DNA from: a virus
Strand: one strand, 5' to 3'
IMG/VR virus record: IMGVR_UViG_3300022752_000332
Span: 1-26,482 of that record
DNA: 26,482 nucleotides
This document shows positions 15,729 through 26,203 of the stretch, one piece after another. The notes under the pieces were generated by a model, which was not told the DNA's origin, did not search any database, and worked only from the letters and a program-made list of their open reading frames with translations. Numbering within the stretch: the stretch's first letter is position 1; each line of letters opens with the position of its first letter. Both the position numbers and the translations under genes were made by a program.

Positions 15729-16705
15729 TCATTGCTCCTGATTACGTCCAGCAAAGGCTTTCATTTCATCAGCCATTAACGCAATCACCCTTCCGTCCAT
15801 TTTGCGAGTCTTCATTAATCGCTGAAGAACAATCAAACTTGCATCTGTCAAGCCACTATCTTTCTTGATTGATTTTGTGTCAAAGGGCAGAAAGTCCTCT
15901 GGCTTCACTTTCGACTTCTTGCCCGCCATCATTCCAGCGGCCATTGCGCCAAACTTAGCAATAGCAATGCTTTGCACGTTGTATTTGGCTATATCATGCT
16001 TATCCAAGTATTTCAATGCACGCTTTACATCCTCAATGGGCTGCAAACCAAATTGATCTGCATTCCATCGAGGATCATGCATATCTGACGATGAAAGGCG
16101 AAAATAAATTTCGTTCCAATCCGTCAGATTTTTTAATTGCCTCCTAGCAAGACTTTCTTGCTGTTCAGCTACTGAGGAGAATTCCTCTTCGTCGCTTTTT
16201 TTGCCGTTACTGCCTCCTGCGCTTCAGCAGCTTGTTCAGCAGTGATAAACTCCACTACTTTGGCCACGTATTTACGCGGCAACGCCTTGGTATCCTCTAA
16301 TTCCCAATCAGCAAGATCCTGCCAATCACCATCAACCATGCCTTGCCCACGAGAGCGAATGAAGGCCGTAACCATGCGGGCATTGGTGCTTTCCATGGAT
16401 GATCCGCTAGTAATCATGCTCAGCGTTTCTTCCGTATAGTCCGCCAGCAGTTCCGCTTCAGTGATGGAGCCACCGCCACCTTGCAACAGATTGAATGCTT
16501 CGTCAAGGCCAATGCCCTTGGCTGATGCAATGCGTTTGGCAAGTTGCACGGCACGAATGGTTGCCTGGCTTTGCAGCTTACTAATTTCCTCTTGCTCAAT
16601 AGCCTCAGCAACTAACCAGCCGCCATATTTCTTAAGGCGCAGATCCGGCAGCAGTTCAAAGTAGTCTTCAGCTTTGGTCTGAACTAGGAAGCTGTATTTG
16701 CTCAT
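15729..16705 (-). CDS. Tail assembly chaperone GT, made by -1 frameshift
   Basis: Predicted 325-aa product that starts like G at 16705, slips back one base on AAAAAAA at 16202-16196 and continues in the other frame to the stop at 15729. The downstream frame is open from the slip site to the stop (155 codons). It first gives SDEEEFSSVAEQQESLARRQ, then LKNLTDWNEIYFRLSSSD, then MHDPRWNADQFGLQPIEDVK. The ATG inside that frame (16082) has no ribosome binding site, so fusion explains this frame better than separate initiation. In lambda the G and GT proteins coat the tape measure during tail assembly, with the T part recruiting tube subunits. Position just before the tape measure fits exactly. Confidence 0.8.
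16169..16705 (-). CDS. Tail assembly chaperone G
   Basis: 178 aa from ATG 16705 to TAG 16169. A TTG two codons upstream is possible but the ATG is preferred; neither has a strong Shine-Dalgarno sequence, and the start overlaps the end of the 87-aa gene. The protein is helical, with a middle segment LLQGGGGSITEAELLADYTE and a charged Ala/Glu/Lys-rich tail (EQAAEAQEAVTAKKATKRN). It is the zero-frame product; a fraction of ribosomes should shift near its end to make GT. Its place between neck genes and tape measure, with the frameshift, identifies it. Sequence similarity to lambda gpG is not evident by eye. Confidence 0.8.
   Translation of the reverse strand: MSKYSFLVQTKAEDYFELLPDLRLKKYGGWLVAEAIEQEEISKLQSQATIRAVQLAKRIASAKGIGLDEAFNLLQGGGGSITEAELLADYTEETLSMITSGSSMESTNARMVTAFIRSRGQGMVDGDWQDLADWELEDTKALPRKYVAKVVEFITAEQAAEAQEAVTAKKATKRNSPQ
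16174..16202 (-). promoter_or_regulatory. -1 ribosomal frameshift signal of G/GT
   Basis: On the minus strand, zero-frame codons GCA AAA AAA contain the slippery heptamer A AAA AAA (16202-16196). After an 8-base spacer, a perfect 5-bp hairpin GAGGA/TCCTC with the 4-base loop ATTC lies at 16187-16174. Slippage by -1 opens the frame that carries the T part, without any stop before 15729. This is the standard arrangement of tail chaperone frameshift sites. The efficiency cannot be judged from sequence. Confidence 0.8.
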
Positions 16706-16931
16706 GGTCAAGGATGTTTAACAATGCGTTGAAGACTTTCACTCGTTCGTTTGAAGAGCGAAATTCCTTGGGAATTTCAACCAGCATTGAATGATTTTCG
16801 TTAGAAAGTCTAACAGTCTCCTCGCGGCAAGAAATAAGACACAAGATGCCGGCTTCTAACGCTGTGCCGTCAATGTCATTATTAATGGCATGAACAGCAC
16901 TATCGGCGCTCCATAAATAGTCAATTTTCAT
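16668..16931 (-). CDS. Small hypothetical protein in the neck/tail operon
   Basis: 87 aa from ATG 16931, overlapping the previous stop as ATGA (16928-16931); the end overlaps the start of the G gene by 38 bases. It begins MKIDYLWSADSAVHAINNDI and includes a Cys-containing strand ILCLISCREETV and a helical C-terminal half. I do not recognise a family. The tight coupling on both sides suggests a real tail-operon gene. Short proteins upstream of chaperone G occur in other phages, but a role cannot be assigned. Confidence 0.6.
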   Translation of the reverse strand: MKIDYLWSADSAVHAINNDIDGTALEAGILCLISCREETVRLSNENHSMLVEIPKEFRSSNERVKVFNALLNILDHEQIQLPSSDQS

Positions 16932-21083: not shown

Positions 21084-21704
21084 TTACTTAGCCTCCTTGG
21101 AGATGGAAAGGGGCTTCTTCCATGCGTTTTGCAGAGTCTCCATATAGGAAGACGGTGCGCTCATGGGAGAAGCAATGGAAGCCACGGCTTTGCGCAGCTC
21201 ATCAGTGGTAGCAGAATCATCGCGGGACGATTCGGCCAGGGTGTCAAACATGGCCTGAACATAGTCATCAGACTTTTCAGACAGATCGACGCTATCGCCA
21301 CGCACGGCTTTGATGGCGTCCACCATCACCTCGCGGGCTTCTTTGCCGCTGAACTCATAAGCGGCATCCAGAACAGGCTTAGCCTTTTCAATCAGAGCAA
21401 GACGCTCTTCAATCATGGAATCAAGATTGATTTCCTTGGCGGCAGCCAGTTCAGTTTTCAGCTCTTCGACGTGCTCGGCCAGAGCATCGGCACGACCCTC
21501 AGCGGAATCGCACTTGCCCTGCATTTCCTTAGCCATGGCATCCATTTCGGACTTCATGGAATCGGCAGCGGCCTGCAGCTCGTCGTATTTTTTCTTCATG
21601 TCCTCGTAGGACATTTTGGCGTCTTCACGTTCTTTGGTGATCGCAAGAGCAACGCTCTCCGTCACTTCAAACTCGGCGCCATCGAAAACGACCTTTGCAG
21701 TCAT
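21084..21704 (-). CDS. Nested in-frame scaffold protein
   Basis: 206 aa from ATG 21704, in the same frame as the protease-scaffold gene. The start is preceded by AGGAGAC (21717-21711) with 6-7 bases to the ATG, a much better site than that of the full-length gene. The product begins MTAKVVFDGAEFEVTESVAL and continues as a coiled coil (MKKKYDELQAAADSMKSEMD and similar) with an acidic middle. This copies the logic of lambda, where scaffold Nu3 is made from an internal start in protease gene C. Scaffold subunits are needed in excess over protease, which the stronger internal site would provide. Confidence 0.7.
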   Translation of the reverse strand: MTAKVVFDGAEFEVTESVALAITKEREDAKMSYEDMKKKYDELQAAADSMKSEMDAMAKEMQGKCDSAEGRADALAEHVEELKTELAAAKEINLDSMIEERLALIEKAKPVLDAAYEFSGKEAREVMVDAIKAVRGDSVDLSEKSDDYVQAMFDTLAESSRDDSATTDELRKAVASIASPMSAPSSYMETLQNAWKKPLSISKEAK

Positions 21705-22280
21705 TAGATGGTCTCCTGTATTAGAGATTAGGGATGGATCGGCTGCATCTTGACGATCAAGATGGAGCTTCACTTGCGGGCCAGCGCGGCCCCGACGAAC
21801 AATAGCGATGTGATTGCCGATGATCTCCTTTTGGATGCCATCGTAATTTTCGCCATTTTCTGTAACGCCAGGCGTGGGATCATAATTCACCCTGTAGCCA
21901 GCGCTTACCTCACGAGCATCTCCCCGCATGATTCGTTCAATGGCGTCCTTATCAGTGATTGTCATCACTGCTTTAACGAAACCATTGTCGTAAACAATTT
22001 CAGTGCCGCTAAAGCCTACTTGGTAGTCTTTAGTGTTATCGGCATCAAGAAGAACAGGGGGATGTTCAGAAGTGATTGCCTTGCCCGCAAACGAAGCAAG
22101 ACTCTCGGGAGACGCCACTTCCGTTTCTGGACGATACTCTCGCCGCACTGAACCATCAGCATCTGTATAGAGCTGAATACCAGTGCGAGCAATCGAAGCC
22201 CACGCCCGAAGGTAACCCTCTGGCGTCATTTCGTATTTCTCGATTGGCGAGAAATCGTACCGACAAGATGTGGTGCTCAT
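21084..22280 (-). CDS. Prohead protease (DUF2213-like) fused to scaffold
   Basis: 398 aa. Residues 1 to about 170 follow the DUF2213 phage protease pattern: YLRAWASIARTGIQLYTDAD, the stretch TSEHPPVL, then GFVKAVMTITDKDAIERIMR, GDAREVSAGYRVNYDPTPGV and QKEIIGNHIAIVRRGRAGPQ. The expected roles are trimming of scaffold and head proteins during maturation. Residues 193-398 are a long charged coiled coil typical of scaffolds, ending with a basic segment. A methionine at residue 193 has its own strong ribosome binding site, giving a nested scaffold. The first ATG has no clear Shine-Dalgarno sequence; ATG at residue 18 is an alternative. Catalytic residues of this family were not assigned by eye. 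Confidence 0.85.
   Translation of the reverse strand: MSTTSCRYDFSPIEKYEMTPEGYLRAWASIARTGIQLYTDADGSVRREYRPETEVASPESLASFAGKAITSEHPPVLLDADNTKDYQVGFSGTEIVYDNGFVKAVMTITDKDAIERIMRGDAREVSAGYRVNYDPTPGVTENGENYDGIQKEIIGNHIAIVRRGRAGPQVKLHLDRQDAADPSLISNTGDHLMTAKVVFDGAEFEVTESVALAITKEREDAKMSYEDMKKKYDELQAAADSMKSEMDAMAKEMQGKCDSAEGRADALAEHVEELKTELAAAKEINLDSMIEERLALIEKAKPVLDAAYEFSGKEAREVMVDAIKAVRGDSVDLSEKSDDYVQAMFDTLAESSRDDSATTDELRKAVASIASPMSAPSSYMETLQNAWKKPLSISKEAK
21711..21717 (-). promoter_or_regulatory. Internal ribosome binding site for nested scaffold
   Basis: The minus strand reads AGGAGAC, 6 bases before an in-frame ATG at 21704. It lies at the junction between the protease domain and the coiled coil, exactly where an internal start is useful. 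Few other starts in the window have a comparable site. Confidence 0.65.
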
Positions 22281-22343: not shown

Positions 22344-22625
22344 ATGATGTTTTTGGCGAAGAGCAGCGCAGATGTTCTTAAGATGCCGTATCAGCAGGCT
22401 CGCTTGCTCATCGCCCAACGAGTGAAAGAAGCCCGTTTAAACAGCGGGCTTTCCCAAAAGGATGTAGCCGAAGCTCTGCATATCAGCCAAAGTTCTTATT
22501 CACGCATTGAGCGTGGTGCTGTTCCGCCAGACTGCGTGCAAATTCGCGCTCTTAGTGGCCTCTATGGAATAAGCGTGTTGTGGCTCATGGGCTACCCATC
22601 ATTCATAGCCCATTCCAGGCACTAA
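22344..22625 (+). CDS. XRE-family HTH transcriptional regulator
   Basis: 93 aa on the plus strand, the only complete gene in that direction. Residues about 20-75 form a Cro/CI-type DNA-binding domain: RVKEARLNSGLSQKDVAEAL, then HISQSSYSRIERGAVPP, with the helix-turn-helix near 36-58, followed by LSGLYGISVLWLMG. There is no second domain, so it may act alone like Cro or as a small local regulator. The start is uncertain: ATG 22344, 22347 and 22383 are all possible and none has a clear ribosome binding site. It diverges from the head operon and its stop codon overlaps that of the gene at 22622-22930 tail to tail. It may control the head promoter, itself, or both. Confidence 0.85.
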   Translation: MMFLAKSSADVLKMPYQQARLLIAQRVKEARLNSGLSQKDVAEALHISQSSYSRIERGAVPPDCVQIRALSGLYGISVLWLMGYPSFIAHSRH

Positions 22626-22930
22626 TCCTCGTCGTCATCGCCGCGAAGATCATTGAGCTGGCTCTCAATGCCTTCCATAATATATGCCTTGGCCATTGCC
22701 TCAATTTCAAACGTAAGAAACTTAGTCGGCTCAAAATGAAGATCCGGCTTTTCATAGACGCTCATCACATAAATATGAGTTTCGTCTAGCCGGCCATTCT
22801 TAAAGCATTGCTTTTCAACCAGTTCCCACTGCGAAGTGTTGCGATGTTCGTTGGCTGAAAGAATCGCCAAAGCCTTTAACAAACCAATGCCTTCATCTTC
22901 TTCTTCGATGACACGCACGTATTCGCTCAT
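22622..22930 (-). CDS. Acidic hypothetical protein
   Basis: 102 aa from ATG 22930, overlapping the preceding stop as ATGA. It starts MSEYVRVIEEEDEGIGLLKA, continues ILSANEHRNTSQWELVEKQC and THIYVMSVYEKPDLHFEPTK, and ends with a very acidic tail (LNDLRGDDDED). The arrangement of helix, strands and helix suggests a small folded protein. No family was recognised. Its end shares four bases with the end of the HTH gene on the other strand. Confidence 0.65.
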   Translation of the reverse strand: MSEYVRVIEEEDEGIGLLKALAILSANEHRNTSQWELVEKQCFKNGRLDETHIYVMSVYEKPDLHFEPTKFLTFEIEAMAKAYIMEGIESQLNDLRGDDDED

Positions 22931-23561
22931 TGGTCTTTTTGACGACTTTCTACCATCTTAATGATGCGATTGGCCCAGGCCCTACCGGCATCACCTCCCC
23001 ATAGCAACCATGCAATATATCCAGCATCATCTTCGCCGCCGCTTTTGTTTTTCTCATGGCGAGAAAAGAATGCGGCCATGCGCTTAATTGTGGCGAAACT
23101 TACAGCTCCGCCGCCCGACAAATCACTAGCCCTCGCCACGCCGCTGCCAATGCCCTGCTTGCCCGCCTCTTGCGTGGTTAAACCGCCTTTGCCGTGCTTC
23201 TTGCGAAGCTCTAGGCCGCGACGGGCAGCGCTTCTAACGCCAGCAGGAGGGGAGAAGCTTTCTGCGTCGCCCCTCAGCGCTTTTTTCCGCAGGAGCCATC
23301 CTCCATTTCCCCTTCTTCCATACCCTCTTCCTCTTCTTCTTCTCCAATGAGGGTCATGAAATAGTTGTCCCAATATTCATCGCTTTTGCCCTGACGGCTA
23401 AGGCCAGCTTCGGAGAGGGCAATTGCAATCGCCTGCTTCCGATTCTTCACAGGCTTTTTGTCGCTGCCCTTCAGAGTGCCAGCTTTAAACTCGCGCATTA
23501 CTTTGGCCACCTTGGCCTGCTTTTGTTTCGTGGTCATGGCATTGATGCTTTCTTTAAGCAT
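22927..23561 (-). CDS. Predicted frameshift fusion: DUF6496-like region plus WLLWGGD phage domain
   Basis: Predicted 211-aa product that starts at ATG 23561, shifts by -1 at A AAA AAG (23286-23280) and continues to the stop at 22927. The second part reads SFSPPAGVRSAARRGLELRK, GGLTTQEAGKQGIGSGVARA, VSFATIKRMAAFFSRH and YIAWLLWGGDAGRAWANRI. This is a conserved domain found in many phages and prophages near head genes, of unknown biochemical role. The downstream frame has no ATG, GTG or TTG between the slip site and well inside this domain. The upstream ATG in that frame (23373) would add an Arg/Gly stretch that is only the out-of-frame reading of the acidic tail of the first protein. Frameshifting is therefore the best explanation; an assembly error is the main alternative. 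Confidence 0.6.
23230..23286 (-). promoter_or_regulatory. Candidate -1 frameshift signal with pseudoknot
   Basis: On the minus strand, zero-frame codons GGA AAA AAG contain A AAA AAG (23286-23280), the heptamer also used in E. coli dnaX. After a 4-base spacer, GAGGGG (23275-23270) pairs with CCCCTC (23252-23247). The loop bases GCTTCT (23258-23253), directly next to that stem, can pair with AGAAGC (23235-23230), giving a classical H-type pseudoknot of two 6-bp stems with 11-base loops. The zero-frame stop TGA is 3 bases after the heptamer. Confidence 0.6.
23274..23561 (-). CDS. DUF6496-like small protein (zero-frame product)
   Basis: 95 aa from ATG 23561 to TGA 23274 (a TTG start two codons earlier would overlap the preceding stop). 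It has a basic N-terminal half, KQAKVAKVMREFKAGTLKGS followed by KKPVKNRKQAIAIALSEAGL, which matches the small DUF6496-type family. A Glu-rich tail follows (GEEEEEEGMEEGEMEDG). The function of the family is unknown; the basic part could bind nucleic acid. The slippery sequence lies at its last codons, so it would be the more abundant product if frameshifting occurs. Confidence 0.65.
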   Translation of the reverse strand: MLKESINAMTTKQKQAKVAKVMREFKAGTLKGSDKKPVKNRKQAIAIALSEAGLSRQGKSDEYWDNYFMTLIGEEEEEEGMEEGEMEDGSCGKKR

Positions 23562-23563
23562 AC

Positions 23564-24280
23564 TCAATGAATAAATCCTATCGGCGCCGTTTCAATGTTC
23601 ATGCCAGGAAAGAATTTATCACGATACAAAACCAAGCCAGTCAACAGGCGCTCAGCAATAAAAGCGATGGCTCGCTTGTCATAACCTTCAATAGAAAGAA
23701 AATGTTCTTTATGTTTCTCCCAAATAGGCAATAAGCAAACAAATAAAGTGGTCATAAATTGTTTGTAATATTGCTTCGGGCCGCGAGCCATGTTGCAACC
23801 AATGAATAAATTTTGTGCCCACAATTTATCAATTTCCTCTCGCGTAAATGCCCAAGCACCAGTATCAGCAAGTTCGCGGGTGATGGCAGGAGCGTCAAAG
23901 TCTGAATGGCCGCCATGAAACTGTTGCTCTAAAGTGCAGCTAAAAACGGCAGGCTCTGGCACATATAGCGTATCTTCGGCATACCATTTGTCCCTGGGCT
24001 CAAGCCAATTACGACGATATTGGGCATTGCCAATGTTCGCCTCTTCAGCATTTAATAGCATCCAATGCACGCAAGATAATTCCCCCCATCGCCTATTTAA
24101 AGAAGAAAGAAAAGCTCCTTCATCATCAAAAACATAACCTTGTTCACGCAATACCCTGCGTTCTGCATCGACGATATTCCACGCGCCCCCCATAATTGGA
24201 ACAACGCGAGATTGTGCTTCATAGCGCACTTTCTCGTTTTGAATGCACACTGCATAAATGGTGCAATCAGACGGTTGCAT
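23564..24280 (-). CDS. DUF4422-like glycosyltransferase
   Basis: 238 aa from ATG 24280, overlapping the previous gene by 14 bases. The pattern follows DUF4422 glycosyltransferase-like proteins: GGAWNIVDAERRVL, then RRWGELSCVHWMLLN (residues about 63-77), then NIGNAQYRRNWL (about 82-93), and LYVPEPAVFSCTLEQQF. The family is associated with capsule and surface polysaccharide synthesis. Here it may modify virion proteins or host surface sugars. Compared with the usual HYRR motif, this protein has QYRR. Acceptor and donor are unknown. Confidence 0.65.
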   Translation of the reverse strand: MQPSDCTIYAVCIQNEKVRYEAQSRVVPIMGGAWNIVDAERRVLREQGYVFDDEGAFLSSLNRRWGELSCVHWMLLNAEEANIGNAQYRRNWLEPRDKWYAEDTLYVPEPAVFSCTLEQQFHGGHSDFDAPAITRELADTGAWAFTREEIDKLWAQNLFIGCNMARGPKQYYKQFMTTLFVCLLPIWEKHKEHFLSIEGYDKRAIAFIAERLLTGLVLYRDKFFPGMNIETAPIGFIH

Positions 24281-24983
24281 ACACTTCCCTCGCAGCCCAC
24301 ATCTCGTTGTAATTATTTACGCTTTTGGCGCCAAGGCCCGTAAGATCGCCACCGCCGGCGGGTTTGCTCCAAGCCATAATCGTGCCATCAGGCAAGACAA
24401 ATGCTCGATTCTTTTGCTCATGCGTGGGCGTCAGCTCCAAATAATCGCCATAGACAAAATCGGGCTGGCTTCCATTGTTTGCCAATGCCTTGCCAAGAAG
24501 CGTAGGACCAGTGGGGCACAATGGCGTGATGCCATAATATTGTTCCACGCAGTTAGCCACAATCATTTCAATGGCAGTTTGCAAAGCCTCATTGTTGGGC
24601 TGTGAATACAAAACCGTAGTGGCGCAAGCCCAGCTTGTATAACTAAACCGTTGGATGTCGCGGAAAGCTAAAAATTTAATGCGATCTCCCACGTCCACAG
24701 CATTAACAGCCCGAACAGCAATGTCGAAATACCAGCCGCCAAAATGATTGAGGAGACAGAACCGCCCAAGATCAGCTTTATACGAAAAAGGACGTAACGA
24801 ATCGTAAGCCCATAAAACGTGCCCACCATAAACAGAAGCAATGAAATCACGGAGCTGTTCATTGTTGTAAATAGTGTGGTTGGCCTTGGGAAAAACTGAA
24901 TCAATAGTGCTAGTGGCATATTGAAGAAATGGAGAAAGTTTTTCTTCCGGATTGGTAGTTAGAAAGATTTGGGAGATTTCCAT
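24267..24983 (-). CDS. GT32-like (DXD-type) glycosyltransferase, motif altered
   Basis: 238 aa from ATG 24983. Residues 68-89 match the sugar-binding signature of the capsular/mannosyl (GT32) transferase group: YKADLGRFCLLNHFGGWYFD, followed by IA. The family signature normally ends in a D-x-D that holds the metal and sugar nucleotide; here it reads D-I-A, so the second Asp is missing. A later segment CPTGPTLLGKALANNGS fits the fold. It is the middle of three glycosyltransferase genes. It may be inactive, use another acidic residue, or be a relaxed relative of DUF4422. Confidence 0.7.
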   Translation of the reverse strand: MEISQIFLTTNPEEKLSPFLQYATSTIDSVFPKANHTIYNNEQLRDFIASVYGGHVLWAYDSLRPFSYKADLGRFCLLNHFGGWYFDIAVRAVNAVDVGDRIKFLAFRDIQRFSYTSWACATTVLYSQPNNEALQTAIEMIVANCVEQYYGITPLCPTGPTLLGKALANNGSQPDFVYGDYLELTPTHEQKNRAFVLPDGTIMAWSKPAGGGDLTGLGAKSVNNYNEMWAAREVYATV

Positions 24984-24988
24984 GGTGA

Positions 24989-26203
24989 TTAAACGATTTT
25001 CGCGGGAGTGCCAAAGCCTTTAAATTCCTCCTCTGGCTGTTTTGCCAACACTGCTTCAACTGTTTTCAGCATCTTTTGCGTAATATCTGGCCAAGTAAAT
25101 TGTTCAATGCACTCCTTGCACCATTGTCCATCAGCCTTAAGCTTGTCACGATCTTCGTAATACGCCGTAAGCAAATTAGCCAAACTGTCTGGAGATGGCT
25201 GTCCGCGATCAAGGCCATAGTTGCGATCTACTTCCCAGCTTTCAATGGCAATCCTTGGCACATCACTAAAGATTTCTTTACAGCTCGTATGATCTGGCAC
25301 CAATTGCGCCACGCCAACAGCAGCATGCTCAGTATTGACAAGCCCCCAACCCTCGCCAATGCAAGTGTTAATGCCAATATCAGCGGAGTTATAGACCATA
25401 TTTAATTGCCCAATAGTCAAGCAATTGGCAGTGGAGAAATGCGGGCTTGTCAAAATAAGTTTGCCGGTGGCATCATATCCCTCGTCACGTGCCACACGCT
25501 TGAACAGCGGAACCAAGTCCCAGCCCATATCTTTGCTGCCCATGTTTAGCCACAAACGTGCATCAGGCTTATCTTTGGCGAATTTAATAAAGCCTTTAAT
25601 TGTTAAATCAATGCGCTTACGTGGCTGGTTCCTGTTGCCATTGAAAACAATAAAGGCATCTTGTGGCACGCCCAAGCTTTCTCGGCATTCTTCCTTGTCC
25701 AATGGAAAAAATTTGGTGAAGTCAGTGCCATGAGGAATGATGCCTACTTCCTTCTTGTAGCCAATCTTGCGGATTTCCTCTGCGCCAAATTCCGTGTAAG
25801 TGGCAATGCCATCCCAAGCATCAATGGGAGTCAGTAATTCAGGGAAAATGCCGTAACTGTCAATGGGAGTGTAAACAAAGAATTTAAAGCCAAGCTTTTC
25901 CTTGAGTTCCTTTACGGCGTCCCACAATGTGATGGCCACCCACACATCATTCGTCACCCACACAAGATCAGGCTTAATGCGCTGCACTAAGTCCGCAATT
26001 CGATGGGAGCCAAACGGATCGGTGCCATGGAGCATGGCCGGATAGGTGTCGTATTTACGCGCCTCCTCGTGCGGATCGCCGTGGTAATTTACGGCCAATA
26101 CGCTCACTTCATGGTGCTCGGCCAGTGCGGGAAGCAGGTTTTCGGCTACGCGGCCAAAGCCAGTTTCTACAAAAGCGTCGCCGCAATAAAGAATTTTTGC
26201 CAT
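24989..26203 (-). CDS. GT4-like glycosyltransferase (GT-B fold)
   Basis: 404 aa from ATG 26203. The N-terminal domain starts MAKILYCGDAFVETGFGRVA, the typical Gly-rich opening of GT-B enzymes. The C-terminal domain has VGIIPHGTDFTKFFPL (about 153-168), FNGNRNQPRKRIDLTIKGF (about 187-205), and the nucleotide-sugar site CIGEGWGLVNTEHAAVG. In this site Glu284 and Glu292 form the E-x7-E pair of retaining GT4 enzymes. The protein should transfer a sugar from a nucleotide donor, in the cytoplasm of the infected cell. The substrate cannot be read. It is the first gene of the leftward block and starts 62 bases from a divergent gene, so a promoter is likely between them; I see no convincing one. Confidence 0.85.
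   Translation of the reverse strand: MAKILYCGDAFVETGFGRVAENLLPALAEHHEVSVLAVNYHGDPHEEARKYDTYPAMLHGTDPFGSHRIADLVQRIKPDLVWVTNDVWVAITLWDAVKELKEKLGFKFFVYTPIDSYGIFPELLTPIDAWDGIATYTEFGAEEIRKIGYKKEVGIIPHGTDFTKFFPLDKEECRESLGVPQDAFIVFNGNRNQPRKRIDLTIKGFIKFAKDKPDARLWLNMGSKDMGWDLVPLFKRVARDEGYDATGKLILTSPHFSTANCLTIGQLNMVYNSADIGINTCIGEGWGLVNTEHAAVGVAQLVPDHTSCKEIFSDVPRIAIESWEVDRNYGLDRGQPSPDSLANLLTAYYEDRDKLKADGQWCKECIEQFTWPDITQKMLKTVEAVLAKQPEEEFKGFGTPAKIV

What the first reader, a model, noticed from the sequence alone, without database searches (positions are those of the whole stretch)
23230..23286. A second programmed -1 frameshift outside the tail chaperones, with a predicted pseudoknot
Two phage ORFs of unknown function (DUF6496-like, and the WLLWGGD domain) overlap by 100 bases in different frames. 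At the end of the first is A AAA AAG, the heptamer used in dnaX, three bases before its stop. After a 4-base spacer come two nested 6-bp stems that form an H-type pseudoknot. The second ORF has no start codon between the slip site and its conserved domain. The longer reading from 23373 begins with Arg/Gly codons that mirror the Glu-rich tail. All of this is directly visible. That phages make a basic DUF6496 protein and a minority fusion carrying the WLLWGGD domain appears not to be described, as far as I know.
Basis: partly seen in the sequence, partly recalled or inferred. Interest (0 to 1): 0.85.

Follow-up and report, generated by a model that had tools for sequence, protein, structure and literature searches.

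The report
Conserved frameshift in a phage head-module gene
A widespread group of (probably cyanobacterial) phages appears to make two proteins from one gene: ribosomes either stop after a short protein or slip back one base at a conserved site and add a second domain, one that other phages attach to the machinery that builds the virus head.

Summary
The -1 frameshift is real by every comparative test I could run; no protein was measured. The window carries A AAA AAG at 23286-23280 (minus strand), three bases before the DUF6496 ORF's TGA. In 96 related loci (89 distinct sequences) the heptamer lies exactly 45 nt before the second domain. It is A AAA AAG (83), G GGA AAG (10) or C CCA AAG (3), the three AAG-ending sites reported as highly shift-prone in E. 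coli. A stop follows at +3 in nearly all. Isolate S-CBS4 has it too, annotated as two genes.

What is conserved is a simple 8-bp hairpin 5 nt downstream: 98% of pairs form, one pair covaries C-G/A-U/U-G, against 66% expected from synonymous recoding.

In 27 further loci the two domains are one continuous ORF without the signal. The tree needs at least six switches between the two designs, so the fusion protein is what selection keeps.

The second domain has no Pfam family or solved relative. In other phages it is the N-terminal part of prohead proteases and protease-capsid fusions, and also occurs in portal proteins. Most likely the frameshift sets how many DUF6496 molecules carry a head-docking domain. 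That role is inferred.

The parts
23274..23537 (-). 0-frame gene: DUF6496 protein, 87 aa from ATG 23537, basic body and Glu-rich tail; stop TGA 23276-23274 (an in-frame TTG at 23567 would give 97 aa)
   Evidence: Pfam PF20106 E 3.7e-9 at residues 14-54 of the 97-aa reading; coordinates and pI
23280..23286 (-). slippery heptamer A AAA AAG
   Evidence: same position in 96 loci as A AAA AAG, G GGA AAG or C CCA AAG
23274..23276 (-). 0-frame stop TGA, 3 nt after the heptamer
   Evidence: TGA or TAA at +3 in 89 of 96 loci, TAG at +0 in 5
23267..23274 (-). 5' arm of the conserved stimulatory hairpin (AGGGGCGA)
   Evidence: alignment A1 columns 13-20; 98.0% of cells paired
23248..23255 (-). 3' arm of the conserved hairpin (TCTCCCCT; one C/U mismatch in the window)
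   Evidence: alignment A1 columns 32-39; column 18-34 covaries; synonymous-recoding null
22927..23280 (-). -1-frame part: 117-aa helical domain with the WLLWGGD motif, reached only through the shift; stop 22929-22927
   Evidence: model pLDDT 89; phrog_2859 E 9.9e-16; no Pfam hit in 70 members; substitutions by codon position 1114/606/4045
22622..22930 (-). next gene, 102-aa acidic protein, ATGA overlap with the end of the -1 frame; counterpart in S-CBS4 is gp020
21084..22280 (-). context: separate DUF2213 / phrog_530 head maturation protease, followed by cement and major capsid genes

Best explanation
This is a programmed -1 ribosomal frameshift. Ribosomes reading the DUF6496 gene meet A AAA AAG, with a 5-nt spacer and an 8-bp hairpin behind it. 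Some terminate two codons later and give the 87-aa DUF6496 protein. The others slip back one base, re-pairing both tRNAs, and continue for 117 codons to a 203-aa fusion. The added domain is one that other tailed phages build into prohead proteases, protease-capsid fusions and portal proteins. The most likely role is to fix the ratio of plain to head-docking DUF6496 molecules during prohead assembly, in the way lambda G/GT fixes a ratio for the tail. Shown by comparison: the site, its geometry, the stop, the hairpin, selection on the -1 frame and the alternative continuous fusions. Inferred: that the shift happens in infected cells, its efficiency, and the head-assembly role. The confidence given is for the frameshift; the head-assembly role alone is about 0.5.
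For: Heptamer at a fixed 45 nt from the domain in 96/96 loci, only the sequences A AAA AAG, G GGA AAG and C CCA AAG, with the preceding codon coding several amino acids but always ending in the needed base. These three are the ones a review names as highly shift-prone in E. coli (PMC5009743). Stop TGA/TAA at +3 in 89/96; Leu codon never CTC/CTT, and Arg codon AGG in 95/96 against 14% of Arg codons in the domain. Hairpin 98.0% paired, covariation score 0.183 against 0.104 shuffled, collapsing when slid by one column; synonymous-recoding null 66% (max 69%), in-frame fusions 77%. No possible start codon at all in 38/89. Third-position excess 1114/606/4045. 27 continuous fusions without the signal, at least 6 switches forced by well-supported branches and 9-11 in bootstrap trees. 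Isolate S-CBS4 carries AGA AAA AAG GGC TAA plus the hairpin. Domain N-terminal to Peptidase_S78_2, Peptidase_S78 and capsid domains; structural matches to prohead protease, XkdF and portal proteins.
Against: No expression data. The head role rests on domain company and gene order, not on an assay. Lineages with a continuous fusion show no second DUF6496 copy in the contig pieces available, so the short protein is not indispensable everywhere. Two relatives (L114, L139) have a one-base difference that breaks the arrangement; error or decay not resolved. The switch count comes from 288 nt and recombination could inflate it.
Confidence: 0.93

Rival explanations
1. Transcriptional slippage: RNA polymerase adds or skips an A in the A run, and standard translation of the altered mRNA gives the fusion.
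For: Runs of six to eight A occur in most loci, and L075 has A7 and is in frame.
Against: 13 of 96 loci use G GGA AAG or C CCA AAG, with only three A in a row, at the same place with the same stop and hairpin. Phasing to the 0 frame and the hairpin 5 nt downstream are ribosomal features.
Confidence: 0.03
2. The second ORF is an independent or coupled gene, started near the first ORF's stop by reinitiation.
For: S-CBS4 gp019 is annotated from a GTG; 29 of 89 loci have a start-type codon at that position.
Against: That codon is GTT, GTA or another Val codon elsewhere and lies inside the conserved domain; 38 of 89 have no start at all before the core. Reinitiation does not explain the heptamer, its turnover, or the continuous fusions.
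Confidence: 0.02
3. A sequencing error or a decaying gene split by one base.
For: The site is a homopolymer run in most loci; L075, L114 and L139 may be such cases.
Against: 89 distinct sequences with identical geometry, isolate S-CBS4, strong purifying selection, heptamers without long runs.
Confidence: 0.01
4. The frameshift is real but serves something other than head assembly, such as a nucleoid or host-takeover protein, or simply limits a costly domain.
For: Both domains are basic (pI 10.9 for the DUF6496 body, 10.3 for the domain), as nucleic-acid binders often are; a PaBG homologue is labelled putative DNA-binding; DUF6496 also occurs after an antitermination gene.
Against: The domain's usual company is prohead protease, capsid and portal; the pair lies just before protease, cement and capsid genes; a stand-alone DUF6496 gene abuts a portal gene in a Vibrio phage.
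Confidence: 0.4

Closest known systems
Lambda G/GT tail-assembly-chaperone frameshift
   Same: dsDNA tailed phage; -1 shift near the end of a short morphogenesis gene adds a C-terminal domain; G GGA AAG is also used by HCTV-5 g-t (PMC5009743)
   Different: Different genes with no tail link; head-side locus; this window has its own candidate tail-chaperone slip at about 16200; most sites here are A AAA AAG with a conserved 3' hairpin
E. coli dnaX frameshift
   Same: A AAA AAG followed after a short spacer by a stem-loop
   Different: There the shifted product is the truncated one; an upstream Shine-Dalgarno stimulator is part of dnaX (own knowledge) but was not found consistently here
Phage capsid frameshifts: T7 gene 10A/10B and phage A2 major head protein
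   Same: -1 shift at a head gene giving a C-terminally extended minor form (cited in PMC10885494 and PMC5009743)
   Different: Here the 0-frame protein is DUF6496, not the capsid protein, and the added domain is one otherwise found on prohead proteases and portals
phrog_2859 / N-terminal region of XkdF-type and S78-type prohead proteases
   Same: Same domain family by sequence and predicted fold
   Different: There the domain is encoded in frame with protease, capsid or portal; here it is behind a frameshift on DUF6496
csoS2 of alpha-carboxysomes
   Same: -1 frameshift giving two forms of a shell-assembly protein (PMC5009743)
   Different: Unrelated proteins; the frameshift product there is the shorter form

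Membership tests
Programmed -1 ribosomal frameshifting | X XXY YYZ heptamer in the 0-frame phase inside the ORF overlap | tested here: met
   96/96 loci, three heptamers
Programmed -1 ribosomal frameshifting | Downstream stimulatory RNA structure a few nt after the heptamer | tested here: met
   8-bp hairpin, spacer 5 nt, 98% paired with covariation
Programmed -1 ribosomal frameshifting | Both frames under protein-level selection and no other way to start the second | tested here: met
   Codon-position bias and absence of starts; DUF6496 conserved in the 0 frame
Programmed -1 ribosomal frameshifting | Transframe protein observed | not testable with these tools
   Needs reporter assay or proteomics
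H-type pseudoknot-stimulated frameshift | Conserved second stem between hairpin loop and downstream sequence | tested here: not met
   GCTTCT/AGAAGC 69% paired, covariation near shuffle level; longest loop-downstream helix mean 5.6 against 5.7 in shuffles
Lambda-type tail assembly chaperone frameshift | Location between major tail protein and tape measure; chaperone homology | tested here: not met
   Locus lies before protease, cement and capsid genes; DUF6496 and phrog_2859 hits only
DUF6496 (PF20106) | Profile match above the curated cut-off | tested here: met
   37.2 bits against cut-off 24
Prohead-protease-associated domain (phrog_2859) | Sequence and fold match | tested here: met
   E 9.9e-16; Foldseek E 5e-8 to an entry named prohead protease
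Prohead-protease-associated domain (phrog_2859) | Actual presence in prohead or virion | not testable with these tools
   No proteomics available

The most novel reading that the evidence does not exclude
A head-side counterpart of lambda G/GT: a frameshift sets how many copies of a DUF6496 assembly factor carry a prohead-docking domain, and phage lineages have repeatedly switched between this dosage control and a permanent fusion.
Probability: 0.4. Interest if true: 0.78.

Novelty: new variant of a known kind. Interest (0 to 1): 0.64.

Why it matters
Phage frameshifts are known mainly from tail chaperones and a few capsid genes. This one lies in a different gene pair, is present in many uncultured phages and at least one isolate, and is missed by annotation, which lists two hypothetical proteins. 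It gives two unnamed families a joint product, ties an uncatalogued domain to prohead proteases and portals, and offers a natural experiment: the same fusion made by frameshift in some lineages and by a continuous ORF in others. That makes the question of why a phage keeps a ratio directly testable.

Tried and rejected
Pseudoknot: searched all loop-downstream helices and counted the proposed second stem; no support. Upstream Shine-Dalgarno stimulator as in dnaX: only 46 of 89 loci have even a 4-nt match 6-16 nt upstream, and the Glu codons produce such motifs by themselves; not claimed. Single-sequence folding energy: mostly not unusual (z -0.1 to -2.7), so the structure argument rests on the alignment. 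Solved structures: no sequence relative of the domain, only two marginal chance-level hits for the fusion, and no fold match reaching Z 5 for the domain or the natural fusion; this does not show the fold is new. Second DUF6496 copy in fusion lineages: none seen in the available contigs. Literature: no paper names DUF6496 and none found describes this frameshift; the library holds only open-licence papers. L075 was first counted as a fusion, then set apart because it differs from L125's clade by one A in the run.

Full report
Observation. The window is a 26,482-base IMG/VR virus contig. On its minus strand the DUF6496 gene (ATG 23537, stop 23276-23274; Pfam PF20106, 37.2 bits) ends GGA AAA AAG CGC TGA. 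A second ORF, open from 23373 to 22927, overlaps it by 100 bases in the -1 frame. A shift at A AAA AAG would give ...DGSCGKK-ALRGDAESFSPP..., 203 aa in all. Correctly phased heptamers of the types A AAA AAG, G GGA AAG, C CCA AAG and A AAA AAA occur twice in 7,724 codons of the minus-strand genes: here, and near the end of the ORF at 16169-16711, a probable tail-chaperone gene.

Comparative test of the site. Three scans of viral contigs plus the window, S-CBS4 and three other phage records gave 131 distinct loci. In 96 of them the second domain lies in the -1 frame of DUF6496 and the heptamer is exactly 45 nt before the domain start. The heptamer is A AAA AAG in 83, G GGA AAG in 10 and C CCA AAG in 3. 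These are the sites that a review of recoding names as highly shift-prone in E. coli (PMC5009743). The codon that supplies the first base of the heptamer varies (GGA, AGA, GAA, AAA, GCA, TCA; CTG, GCG, ATG, TCG, TTG; TCC, TGC) but always ends in the needed base. The 0-frame stop is TGA or TAA at +3 in 89 loci and TAG at +0 in 5. The Leu codon of ALRGD is never CTC or CTT, and the Arg codon is AGG in 95 of 96, although AGG is 14% of Arg codons in the domain. Isolate Synechococcus phage S-CBS4 has AGA AAA AAG GGC TAA and is annotated as two hypothetical proteins, gp018 and gp019. A contig binned as a Rhodobiaceae genome (L402) has the same arrangement.

RNA structure. On the ungapped alignment of 89 distinct sequences an 8-bp hairpin with an 11-nt loop starts 5 nt after the heptamer. 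98.0% of cells pair, column 18-34 is C-G in 38, A-U in 34 and U-G in 6, and the pattern collapses when one arm is slid by one column. If codons are redrawn synonymously, 66% of cells pair on average (maximum 69% of 300 draws), or 82% with the Leu and Arg codons held fixed. The second stem of the proposed pseudoknot pairs in 69% of cells and its covariation is near the shuffle level; loop-to-downstream helices are no longer than in shuffles. I therefore conclude a hairpin, not a pseudoknot. In the window itself one of the eight pairs is a C/U mismatch.

Expression of the second ORF. In 38 of 89 sequences there is no ATG, GTG or TTG in the -1 frame before the domain core; the only recurrent one after the slip, at codon 14 (29 of 89), lies inside the domain and is the GTG annotated as the start in S-CBS4. 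Substitutions against the window fall 1114, 606 and 4045 on codon positions 1, 2 and 3, as expected of a translated, constrained frame.

Natural fusions. Twenty-seven loci, not counting L075, encode DUF6496 and the domain in one continuous ORF, with no heptamer and with varied Arg codons at the junction. Their hairpin pairing is 77%, and only one of 25 distinct sequences forms all eight pairs. On a maximum-likelihood tree of the domain the fusions are not one group: well-supported branches force at least six changes, and bootstrap trees need 9 to 11. The heptamer type also changed several times. The tree rests on 288 nt, and recombination could inflate the count. Records with the fusion show one DUF6496 copy only, so those phages apparently do without the short form. 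The constant element is the fusion protein; the frameshift adds the short form.

What the domain is. It has no Pfam family in any of 70 members and no relative in solved structures. AlphaFold2 gives a confident all-helical model (pLDDT 89, pTM 0.82). Structural neighbours in predicted viral proteins are named prohead protease, XkdF and portal. By sequence the domain is N-terminal to Peptidase_S78_2 in Limnohabitans phage DC31 and its relatives, and to Peptidase_S78 plus capsid in Roseobacter phages and their relatives; records in the phage collection label matches as portal, prohead protease and major capsid protein. In this window the protease (phrog_530) is a separate gene, followed by cement and capsid genes. 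A stand-alone DUF6496 gene abuts a portal gene in Vibrio phage vB_VpM-pA2SJ1.

Mechanism and standing of each step. Shown by comparison: site, phase, stop, hairpin, selection, alternative fusions. From established knowledge: tandem slippage at such heptamers with AAG in the A site. Inferred: that the shift occurs in infected cells, its efficiency, and that the fusion docks DUF6496 to the prohead so that the shift sets a ratio, as for lambda G/GT. I put the frameshift at about 0.95 and the head-assembly role at about 0.5. That the hosts are cyanobacteria is inferred from S-CBS4 alone.

Novelty. The signals are classical; the gene pair, the product and the repeated exchange between frameshift and permanent fusion are not described in the papers I could search. 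I file it as a new variant of a known kind.

Noticed in passing
window 15729-16711 (minus strand): Probable tail-chaperone pair with A AAA AAA (GCA AAA AAA GCG) at about 16200 near the end of the first ORF; a candidate second frameshift of the classical kind.
   Followed up: partly
window 23564-26203 (minus strand): Three glycosyltransferase-like genes (DUF4422, DXD-type, GT4-type) lie directly upstream of the frameshift pair; S-CBS4 has a group I glycosyltransferase between portal and the pair.
   Followed up: no
window 22344-22625 (plus strand): A short HTH regulator on the opposite strand sits inside the head module; S-CBS4 has a transcriptional regulator at the same place.
   Followed up: no
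L132 around 782-2506: DUF6496 follows in frame, without a stop, a long upstream protein with many Cys motifs; possible three-part fusion that ends at a C CCA AAG frameshift.
   Followed up: partly
L083 1329-2123; L084 3998-4774: A prohead protease of XkdF type matches a PHROG named DNA methyltransferase (phrog_1530), and relatives are annotated in Vibrio phages as ParB or DNA methyltransferase; these look like misannotations.
   Followed up: partly
L114 and L139 near the junction: One-base differences break the -1 relation (L114 has five A where its near-identical sister L120 has six).
   Followed up: partly
L339, L345, L375, L399: Other accessory domains (DUF5824-like, TUDOR-like) sit near the helical domain on the protease or capsid protein, suggesting an exchangeable set of prohead-linked domains.
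   Followed up: no
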